From Planctomycetota bacterium (GTDB lineage Bacteria; Planctomycetota; UBA1135; GCA-002686595): DNA of 40,953 nucleotides. The notes below the pieces were generated by a model. It was not told where the DNA came from, ran no database searches, and saw only the letters and a program-made list of their open reading frames with translations. The DNA is taken from assembly GCA_016220035.1 (NCBI GenBank), contig JACRIO010000026.1:1-40953 (forward strand). The letters are read 5' to 3'. The translations under genes and the position numbers were made by a program. Shown in pieces: positions 6,181 to 10,509 of the stretch (positions are counted from its first letter, which is position 1; every line of letters starts with the position of its first letter).

Positions 6181-6480
6181 TCAGCGCGGGCGGGCCGCGC
6201 TGCGGTGCGCGAGGGTCGCGACGAGCTCGCCGACCTCCGCGCGGAAGCGCACCCCGTAGATCCCGGGCACGCCGTTGCGCACGACGGTGGCGTCGAGCCG
6301 CCCACCGAGCACGTCGCAATCGAGCTGCACGTCCTCGCCGATTTCGAGCTGGTGCCCCGGCACGAGCACGAGCGCGCCGCGGGCGCTGACGTCGGCGACC
6401 TCGCCGGGCACGTCCTCGGTGTCGCGCCGCAACGTCGCGGACGCCTTGAAGGGCACGCGGCCCTCCGTTCGTCGCTCGCC
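6181..6480 (-). other. PilZ domain within the 6181-10509 protein
   Basis: RTEGR (RxxxR) followed by DVSARG (DxSxxG), the canonical c-di-GMP binding signature, then beta-rich GALVLVPGHQLEIGEDVQLDCDVLGGRLDATVV. Confidence 0.75.
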
Positions 6481-9400: not shown

Positions 9401-10509
9401 AAGCCCTCGGGCGTCGTGTAGCGGCCAAGGAACTCGTACCCCATCCGCGCGAGCTTGAGGCCGAGGATCGCCGCGTAGAACGAGCTGCGCCGGTCGTAGC
9501 ACGGGATGACGACGGGCTTCTTCGGCAGCGCGCGCAGCGCCGCGTCGAGTTCGTCCGACGTGAGCTTGCGCGCGGGCACGTTCACCGCGCCGGGCAGGTG
9601 TCCGAGGCCCTCGTACTCGCCCGGATAGCGCACGTCGACGAACAGCACGTCCTGCTCTTCCAGCAGCGCCATCACGTCGGGCGTGTCGAGCAGCACGTCC
9701 TTGTTCGCGTAGTCGGGCAGCTCGCGCAGCTCGCGACGCGCGTGGTCCCCGCTCATCGCGAGCGGGCGATCCTCGGCGATCCACTTCTCGTAACCGCCGA
9801 CCACGAACGCGACGTCGTAGCCGTGGTCGCGCAGTTCGGCGCACATTTCGGAGCTGCGATTGCCGTTGAAGCAAAGCAGCAGCGCGGGCTCGCCCTTCTT
9901 CAGGTACTTGCCCGGCGCCTTCATCAGGTCCGGGTAGCGGACGTGCGCCGCGCCCTCGATGCGGCCGACCTCGTACTCCTCGCTCTCGCGCACGTCGTAA
10001 ACGCGCGTGAAGCGCTGCGCGGCGCGGGCGGTGTCGAACTCCGTCGTCTGCAGGCCGTCGTCGCGCTGTTTCTGCTCGCTGAACGAAAGCTCCTTGAGCG
10101 ACACGTCGCCGACGGTCTTGCCGTCCTCCTTCGAGGAACGCTCGAGGTTCACGTGCAAACGGCGTTCGCGCTGATCGCGCGCGTCGAGCGCGAAGAAGCC
10201 CCAGCCAAGGGCCGTGATCACGAACAACGCGCCGCTCGCGAGGAACGCGCGCCGCCATCCCTTCGACGTCCCTCCGTGCGCGCCGCGGGTCGAGCGGCCG
10301 CGGAAGAACCAGCTCCCGAGCACGATCGAGAGGAGTCCGAGCACCTGCGCCGCGCTCGCGAACAAGTTGACGACGAGGTCCGGAGATGGGATCGCCCATG
10401 CACGCTCGCCGGTGACGAAACCGAGAGCGACGAGGACGGAGAAGGCGCGCGCCAGGTCCTGCGCGGTGCAGCGGTGTGCCGGAACTCGGAACTCGTCTTG
10501 GGGATCCAT
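6181..10509 (-). CDS. Multidomain membrane fusion: 2 TM - rhodanese - rhodanese - YidC/Oxa1-like - PEP-synthase/PPDK ATP-grasp - helical region - phosphohistidine swivel - PilZ
   Basis: One uninterrupted frame from ATG 10509 (MDPQDEFRVPAHRC) to the stop at 6181, 1442 aa. Rhodanese loops LLCFNGNRSSE and VVIPCYDRRSSF; YidC-like core LALRLVVLPLALKAERDRLVQAALKPKLAEL...WLWIPELGARDPRFVLPVIVGLL; ATP-grasp GNKALRLAQLARAGLPVPDGFVVTT and VAVRSSGAREDGADKSYAGVFESIL; swivel GGWLSHAAIQARE; PilZ RTEGR...DVSARG. Confidence 0.88.
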   Translation of the reverse strand: MDPQDEFRVPAHRCTAQDLARAFSVLVALGFVTGERAWAIPSPDLVVNLFASAAQVLGLLSIVLGSWFFRGRSTRGAHGGTSKGWRRAFLASGALFVITALGWGFFALDARDQRERRLHVNLERSSKEDGKTVGDVSLKELSFSEQKQRDDGLQTTEFDTARAAQRFTRVYDVRESEEYEVGRIEGAAHVRYPDLMKAPGKYLKKGEPALLLCFNGNRSSEMCAELRDHGYDVAFVVGGYEKWIAEDRPLAMSGDHARRELRELPDYANKDVLLDTPDVMALLEEQDVLFVDVRYPGEYEGLGHLPGAVNVPARKLTSDELDAALRALPKKPVVIPCYDRRSSFYAAILGLKLARMGYEFLGRYTTPEGFWVPGKEKAHVAAWKAEQEEKTLFGFVAAPLRAVLKNAAGWCGSLALAIALCVLALRLVVLPLALKAERDRLVQAALKPKLAELGARCKGDARAVSRKTMELLRAERVRPVLNLVATIVQLVLFTAFFGVVGAVAKGSTERWLWIPELGARDPRFVLPVIVGLLLAAMVVVTGARATRTRVVTALVAGVAIGGLVATVSAATNLYLVLNLLLLVVQALAVRAWFDRRARNAANASQRYAGAAVVPLRDADRASGCGNKALRLAQLARAGLPVPDGFVVTTAVLERRRSQGSWNTRDRITIERAFTVLDAERVAVRSSGAREDGADKSYAGVFESILDVRAENLFEALDEVADSLASTRAQAYSGVEAESGAIVVQTMVPAEFAGVLFTEHPGSSGAAAIELVRGLGDALVSGRADPISLRFGRVTGRPLDETRAPIELAPLFDLGRKVEALFGRPQDIEWAYANGSFLLLQARDITRLSSHGSSPAALRERERARVLALARDARAGAVVLGQNELAELLPRPSPLSASWMDALWAHGGSTDLACRELGVPYDVDPDSAPFVIGAFGATWVNRIEEKQRLTRAPGMLAAFRLSRAADALESEWREVFLARFQREARLREALDLTQFSFKELADLHEETERRILEESYLAAERINIAADFYFKAAVRALEKRGLDPARYLSHLPETVVHQAMERLAAVGRGEADLSAFLKLFGHRAPQDYELSQPRYSENPKVARAMAQRSAAPGRKHDDAPPETGSRVLRLEVERACRFQALKEEAKHHALRDFAFLRAVLVEMGERLNVGDSIFLLRRDEIGRLSDAHFRQEQLPALVTERAAEARAFEGVQLSGEVTLDALEALELDRAVQSTSPRADRVLKGLRVSGGGDVTGRARVLRASEEIDRFEDGEVLVARFTDPTWTPVFPRARGIVTEVGGWLSHAAIQAREYDLTAVVGVAGAMQMLMDGDLVTLRADGSVERVGERRTEGRVPFKASATLRRDTEDVPGEVADVSARGALVLVPGHQLEIGEDVQLDCDVLGGRLDATVVRNGVPGIYGVRFRAEVGELVATLAHRSAARPR
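8719..9333 (-). other. YidC/Oxa1/Alb3-like insertase core within the 6181-10509 protein
   Basis: About 205 aa with several hydrophobic helices, Arg in the first core helix (ALCVLALRLVVLPL), a charged hairpin (KAERDRLVQAALKPKLAELGARCKGDARAVSRKTMELL) and WIPELGARDPRFVLPVI. Confidence 0.75.
9394..10032 (-). other. Tandem rhodanese domains within the 6181-10509 protein
   Basis: YDVRESEEYEVGRIEGAAHVRY...LLCFNGNRSSEMCAELRDHGYDVAFVVGGYEKW and FVDVRYPGEYEGLGHLPGAVNVP...VVIPCYDRRSSFYAA; active-loop Cys present in both. Confidence 0.85.

What the first reader, a model, noticed from the sequence alone, without database searches (positions are those of the whole stretch)
6181..10509. One polypeptide joins rhodaneses, a YidC-like insertase, a PEP-synthase-type dikinase module and PilZ
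A continuous 1442-aa frame reads: two N-terminal TM helices; two rhodanese domains with active-loop Cys; a YidC/Oxa1-like core that keeps the Arg in its first helix; an ATP-grasp domain with the PEP synthase/PPDK motifs; an intermediate helical region; a swivel domain with the phosphoryl-acceptor motif GGWLSHAAIQARE; and PilZ. Joining membrane insertion, sulfur transfer, ATP-dependent phosphotransfer and a c-di-GMP receptor is very unusual, and I know of no characterised protein with this architecture. It could be a membrane-embedded, second-messenger-controlled dikinase in which the YidC-like part acts as an anchor or a substrate-recognition channel.
Basis: partly seen in the sequence, partly recalled or inferred. 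Interest (0 to 1): 0.87.

Follow-up and report, generated by a model that had tools for sequence, protein, structure and literature searches.

The report
Membrane-spanning rhodanese–YidC–dikinase fusion protein
A single 1,442-residue bacterial protein really does join two sulfur-transfer domains outside the membrane, a YidC-like membrane core and an intact ATP-driven phosphotransfer enzyme inside the cell; it is a conserved, uncharacterised family that nearly always comes with a dedicated periplasmic binding protein, and usually with a membrane sensor next to it, which gives the first real clue to what it does.

Summary
The minus-strand ORF 6181-10509 encodes two rhodaneses, a YidC/Oxa1 core, a dikinase module and PilZ, all above Pfam cut-offs. 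It is not an assembly join: hundreds of homologues keep the same order in one ORF across Planctomycetota, Gamma-, Alpha- and Deltaproteobacteria and Nitrospirota, and on 82 Roseobacter plasmids.

The RPH residues I could map are kept for ATP attack (K627, R684, E828, H1303; T136 becomes S703) and acceptor transfer (K1141, E1142, K1145). Topology puts the rhodaneses in the periplasm and the dikinase in the cytoplasm. PilZ is an optional add-on.

New result: the fusion has a partner. In 51 of 55 host genomes tested there is either a specific PtxB/PhnD-type oxyanion-binding protein (40) or a PstS-like one (11), never both, usually adjacent and paired with a membrane sensor whose output is swapped (hybrid kinase, GGDEF-EAL or chemoreceptor). 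No ABC permease recurs. Best reading: a membrane-spanning enzyme that acts on, or in response to, the oxyanion caught by that binding protein. Substrate and transport are unproven. No paper describing it was found.

The parts
6181..10509 (-). fusion protein, 1442 aa: signal peptide/TM - 2 TM - 2 rhodaneses - YidC-like core - RPH-type dikinase - PilZ
10195..10446 (-). N-terminal signal-peptide-like segment (residues 22-40, AWA) and two TM helices (45-63, 87-105); conserved AIPSPDLV motif at residues 39-46
9754..10062 (-). rhodanese domain 1, Cys213 (9871-9873)
9394..9702 (-). rhodanese domain 2, Cys337 (9499-9501)
8734..9321 (-). YidC/Oxa1-like 5-TM core with invariant Arg426
7954..8676 (-). 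ATP-grasp domain (K627, R684, S703, E828)
6796..7953 (-). middle domain, counterpart of the RPH rifampin-binding domain; K1141-E1142-x-x-K1145 matches RPH R666-E667-x-x-K670
6487..6795 (-). swivelling phosphohistidine domain, His1303 codon 6601-6603
6220..6480 (-). PilZ domain with RxxxR and DxSxxG
10510..10894 (.). divergent intergenic region between fusion and SBP/sensor genes
10895..11779 (+). PtxB/PhnD-type periplasmic oxyanion-binding protein (SBP), conserved RFGPASY, FAFGDxxSTIGR, RHD, NVTKPW motifs
11751..13739 (+). membrane hybrid histidine kinase (HAMP-HisKA-HATPase-receiver), overlapping the SBP gene

Best explanation
The protein is a membrane-spanning enzyme of a three-part system. 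Outside, a dedicated binding protein captures an oxyanion (class inferred from homology, identity unknown). It signals to a membrane sensor (kinase, cyclase/phosphodiesterase or chemoreceptor), and the same ligand, or its product, is also the business of the fusion protein. The tandem rhodaneses sit in the periplasm as the receiving end, the YidC-like core spans the membrane as the link or passage, and the cytoplasmic RPH-type dikinase uses ATP (to AMP + Pi) to charge His1303, which swings to the middle domain and phosphorylates an acceptor. Where PilZ is present, c-di-GMP probably tunes the cytoplasmic part. Shown by computation: architecture, intact catalytic residues, topology, co-occurrence and linkage with the binding protein and sensor. 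Inferred: that the fusion and the SBP share a ligand, that the dikinase phosphorylates that ligand or something made from it, and any passage through the YidC-like core.
For: Linkage: 54 of 84 loci have the PtxB/PhnD-type SBP and 9 a PstS-like SBP within 6 kb, nearly all with an adjacent sensor, in at least four gene orders (divergent, upstream, downstream, convergent). Co-occurrence: of 55 distinct host genomes tested, 40 carry the PtxB/PhnD-type SBP, 11 the PstS-type, none both, 4 neither, including hosts where it is unlinked (G130, G022, G415). In unselected samples all 7 fusion-bearing genomes of 249 in one Roseobacter family and all 8 of 300 in the window's phylum carry it, against 8 and 12 strong SBP carriers in all (p about 7e-13 and 3e-13, not corrected for phylogeny). 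Sensor outputs are exchanged (hybrid HK, GGDEF-EAL, MCP) while SBP and fusion stay. Topology from positive-inside charges agrees with YidC homology. Residues of both half-reactions of RPH are conserved (PMC4844700).
Against: SBP+kinase pairs also exist without the fusion (G039, G350, G168, G148, G465), so the SBP may serve the sensor only and the fusion may merely be regulated by that pair. No substrate is known; the SBP lacks the third Ser of the PtxB STS motif (STI here; PMC5700983), so its ligand cannot be read off. Four hosts show neither SBP (draft genomes). No biochemical or expression data. I know of no YidC-fold protein that serves as a small-anion passage.
Confidence: 0.42

Rival explanations
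1. The fusion is a downstream effector: the SBP-sensor pair only controls its expression or activity, and its substrate is unrelated to the SBP ligand (as AioX-AioS-AioR controls arsenite oxidase).
For: SBP+HK pairs occur without the fusion; AioX-type PhnD-like SBPs are known to work with a sensor kinase in signalling rather than transport (PMC5908839); divergent promoter arrangement in the window and in Roseobacters.
Against: No response regulator with DNA-binding output was seen to recur in the cluster; in L034/L043 the sensor is a chemoreceptor, which would not be expected to control an enzyme gene, yet SBP and fusion stay together.
Confidence: 0.27
2. Sulfur chemistry: the periplasmic rhodaneses take sulfane sulfur from thiosulfate (an S-SO3 oxyanion bound by the SBP) and the dikinase activates the product or partner in the cytoplasm.
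For: Both rhodanese active-loop Cys are conserved in 77 of 78 aligned members; 24 of 43 host genomes tested carry SoxB, including both Nitrospirota hosts.
Against: Within one Roseobacter family fusion hosts are no more often SoxB-positive than others (4/7 against 158/249 overall, p = 0.7); no host in the window's phylum carries a SoxB over the cut-off.
Confidence: 0.13
3. A specialised membrane-protein insertase: the YidC-like core inserts particular membrane proteins and the other domains regulate it.
For: Confident YidC fold and invariant groove Arg426; the host genome also has a canonical YidC-length homologue (G000:C328, 654-aa frame), so the fusion is not the housekeeping copy.
Against: Does not explain the SBP pairing, the RPH-type acceptor domain or the periplasmic rhodaneses.
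Confidence: 0.1
4. Misassembly or gene-calling artefact joining neighbouring genes.
For: A few split gene calls exist (e.g. P0130/P0170, P0136/P0160).
Against: Hundreds of one-ORF homologues from independent assemblies, including complete plasmids of Phaeobacter, Leisingera and Ruegeria sp. TM1040.
Confidence: 0.01

Closest known systems
Rifampin phosphotransferase (RPH, Listeria; PDB 5hv1/5fbs) and its relatives RedH/PigC
   Same: Domain order ATP-grasp / acceptor domain / C-terminal swivel His; best fold match (5hv1, E 1e-31); Lys22, Arg117, Glu297, His825 and apex Glu667, Lys670 conserved, Arg666 replaced by Lys, Thr136 by Ser (PMC4844700)
   Different: About 20% identity; membrane-anchored through a fused YidC-like core and periplasmic rhodaneses; substrate unknown; far below the NCBIfam equivalog cut-offs
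PEP synthase / pyruvate phosphate dikinase
   Same: ATP-grasp and phosphohistidine chemistry
   Different: His domain is C-terminal, not central; no PEP/pyruvate TIM barrel
YidC/Oxa1 membrane insertases
   Same: Five-TM core, invariant groove Arg, cytoplasmic C1 loop
   Different: The fusion has rhodaneses on the periplasmic side and a large enzyme at the C-terminus; insertase activity untested
AioX-AioS type oxyanion sensing (PhnD-like SBP + sensor kinase)
   Same: PhnD-family SBP encoded beside a membrane sensor kinase, no recurring ABC permease (PMC5908839)
   Different: Closest solved SBP is the phosphite-binding PtxB; no Cys in the SBP; the third component is the rhodanese-YidC-dikinase fusion, and the sensor's output can be GGDEF-EAL or MCP

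Membership tests
RPH-type dikinase | ATP-grasp first, acceptor domain, phosphohistidine domain last, no TIM barrel | tested here: met
RPH-type dikinase | catalytic residues of both half-reactions | tested here: met
   K627, R684, E828 in 78/78 and H1303 in 75/78 with 3 gaps; K1141, E1142, K1145 invariant in A3; correspondence to RPH. RPH Gln337 not aligned
RPH-type dikinase | rifampin (or other known acceptor) phosphorylation | not testable with these tools
   equivalog cut-offs for RPH, PigC, RedH and PEP synthase not reached
PEP synthase/PPDK | C-terminal PEP/pyruvate-binding TIM barrel and central His domain | tested here: not met
   no PF02896-type hit; His domain C-terminal
YidC/Oxa1 superfamily | conserved five-TM core with groove Arg | tested here: met
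   below the NCBIfam TIGR03592 cut-off (69.9 against 84.3)
YidC/Oxa1 superfamily | membrane-protein insertion activity | not testable with these tools
   needs complementation or cross-linking
Rhodanese | active-loop Cys in each domain | tested here: met
   Cys213 and Cys337 in 77/78 members each
PilZ c-di-GMP receptor | RxxxR and (D/N)xSxxG motifs | tested here: met
   present in the window; both motifs found in 99 of 106 homologues with at least 95 residues after the swivel domain; domain absent in many other members
AioX/ArxX arsenic-sensing SBP | Cys106 in the pocket | tested here: not met
   no Cys in the translated SBP
PtxB phosphite-specific SBP | STS-H motif and capping Tyr | tested here: inconclusive
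   S, T and H kept, third Ser replaced by Ile; cap Tyr position not resolved

The most novel reading that the evidence does not exclude
The fusion is a new kind of primary uptake system: an ABC-free, binding-protein-dependent group translocator in which a YidC-like core passes an oxyanion-type substrate from periplasmic rhodaneses to a cytoplasmic RPH-type dikinase that traps it by ATP-driven phosphorylation.
Probability: 0.15. Interest if true: 0.95.

Novelty: new variant of a known kind. Interest (0 to 1): 0.74.

Why it matters
It would be an ATP-driven enzyme of a known catalytic type built into a membrane protein with a YidC-like core, which no described dikinase or insertase family that I know of shows, and it comes with a dedicated periplasmic ligand-binding protein. 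That makes function directly testable: identify what the binding protein binds, then ask whether the dikinase uses it. Members occur in cultured marine bacteria (Phaeobacter inhibens 2.10 PGA2_RS18840, Ruegeria sp. TM1040 TM1040_RS03520, Leisingera). If translocation were shown it would be a new transport principle and a new use of the Oxa1 fold.

Tried and rejected
Assembly artefact: rejected by homologues in complete plasmids and many assemblies. Split or rhodanese-free natural variants: the shorter homologues start or stop mid-domain and look like gene-call fragments. True PEP synthase/PPDK: rejected, no barrel. Link to Sox sulfur oxidation: not supported within one Roseobacter family. Obligate c-di-GMP control: rejected, PilZ optional. 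Arsenite sensing by the SBP: rejected, no Cys. SBP-only genomes hold no consistent replacement for the fusion beside the SBP: sulfatase, CitMHS-type permease and CoA-transferase in single cases. Literature searches for the domain combination found nothing relevant (open-licence PMC only). Zn-uptake genes beside the Roseobacter loci are lineage-specific. The 16 loci first scored without partners: 8 of their genomes turned out to carry the SBP elsewhere.

Full report
What is there. The minus-strand ORF 6181-10509 is open over 1442 codons and carries two rhodaneses, a YidC (60KD_IMP) core, an ATP-grasp (PPDK_N), a phosphohistidine domain and PilZ, each above its Pfam cut-off. AlphaFold models are confident over most of the protein (mean pLDDT 85.6 for residues 1-609, low for the first 14 residues and 26-54; 92.7 for 610-1442). 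The first half matches rhodaneses and YidC (3wo6, TM-score 0.72 by target length), the second half RPH (5hv1), with VCA0042-type PilZ among the weaker matches.

It is a family, not an accident. A search of predicted proteins gave 754 hits at E<=0.001, and the 120 best are 1338-1618 aa with the rhodanese, YidC, PPDK_N and PEP-utilizer domains in one protein. A scan of one genome per species found 144 encoded relatives with two strict motifs, in Planctomycetota, Gamma-, Alpha- and Deltaproteobacteria and Nitrospirota among the best 80, and 82 plasmid records, mostly Phaeobacter and Leisingera, carry a match. It is rare and patchy: 8 clear cases in 300 genomes of the window's phylum and 7 in 249 of a Roseobacter family. 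PilZ is optional and a GAF domain is sometimes added.

Enzyme. The dikinase has the RPH layout: ATP-grasp, acceptor domain, swivel His last. On the profile alignment with RPH, RPH Lys22, Arg117, Thr136, Glu297 and His825 correspond to K627, R684, S703, E828 and H1303, and the apex residues Arg666, Glu667, Lys670 that position the transferred phosphate (PMC4844700) correspond to K1141, E1142, K1145. K627, R684 and E828 are kept in all 78 aligned members and H1303 in the 75 that have a residue there; K1141, E1142 and K1145 are invariant in alignment A3. So it should run ATP to AMP + Pi + phospho-acceptor; the acceptor is unknown.

Topology. Averaged over 51 homologues, loops 64-86 (+4.8/-0.2), 433-482 (+12.1/-5.8), 543-549 (+2.5/-0.1) and 590-609 (+4.4/-1.2) carry net positive charge; the 106-413 rhodanese segment (+36.9/-40.8) and 502-523 (+1.0/-2.7) do not. 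With the AWA-ending hydrophobic start this puts the rhodaneses in the periplasm and the dikinase and PilZ in the cytoplasm, as YidC homology predicts. Computed, not measured.

Partners. Divergently from the fusion lie a PtxB/PhnD-type binding protein (10895-11779; closest solved structure PtxB, 6e-26) and a hybrid histidine kinase (11751-13739). Among 84 loci, 54 have this SBP and 9 a PstS-like SBP within 6 kb, mostly with a sensor beside it, in different gene orders. The sensor is a hybrid kinase, a HAMP-PAS-GGDEF-EAL protein or a chemoreceptor. In whole genomes the pairing is stronger: of 55 distinct hosts tested, 40 carry the PtxB/PhnD-type SBP, 11 the PstS-type (E <= 1e-39), none both, 4 neither (two genomes appearing under two handles counted once; weaker PstS-type matches in three PhnD-type hosts, E 2e-38 to 6e-21, were not counted). 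Half of the hosts lacking the gene next door have it elsewhere in the genome. The converse is not true: at least five genomes have SBP and kinase but no fusion. Genomes in each sample are related, so the Fisher p-values overstate significance.

Mechanism. The constant unit is SBP plus fusion; the sensor output varies. This fits a fusion that deals with the SBP's ligand better than one that is merely a regulated target, because a chemoreceptor would not be expected to regulate it. I therefore propose a membrane-spanning enzyme that acts on, or in response to, the bound oxyanion. Direct transport through the YidC-like core is the boldest version and is not shown. Sulfur oxidation was tested through SoxB and is not associated within a family (4/7 against 158/249).

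Literature. Searches of open-licence full text found no description of this architecture; subscription papers are not covered. Database names for members are generic ('PEP/pyruvate-binding domain-containing protein', 'YidC/Oxa1 family', 'rifampicin phosphotransferase').

Noticed in passing
window 5019-5942 (-): HupE/UreJ-family membrane protein just downstream of the fusion; not seen to recur in the neighbourhoods of relatives.
   Followed up: partly
L034:8063-9682, L043 and L061 (cluster C38): The sensor slot is filled by a methyl-accepting chemotaxis protein (Pfam-checked in L034; the others by similarity), so one binding protein family is combined with kinase, GGDEF-EAL or chemoreceptor outputs.
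   Followed up: partly
L101 / NC_018421.1 and other Roseobacter plasmids: In Roseobacters the module is plasmid-borne beside Zn-uptake genes (znuABC, Fur-family regulator) and polysaccharide genes (tviB).
   Followed up: no
L103-L107: SBP plus hybrid kinase pairs without the fusion; in L106 next to a CitMHS/ArsB-type permease, in L105 next to a sulfatase.
   Followed up: partly
P0115, P0116: Two fusion homologues carry a GAF domain after PilZ.
   Followed up: no
window 29820-32954 (-): Large ORF with cytochrome c3/c7-like multihaem matches.
   Followed up: no
window 26046-28058 (-): Sulfatase with a C-terminal DUF5666 domain.
   Followed up: no
window 38675-40945 (-): 4Fe-4S plus pyridine-nucleotide-disulphide oxidoreductase fusion.
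   Followed up: no
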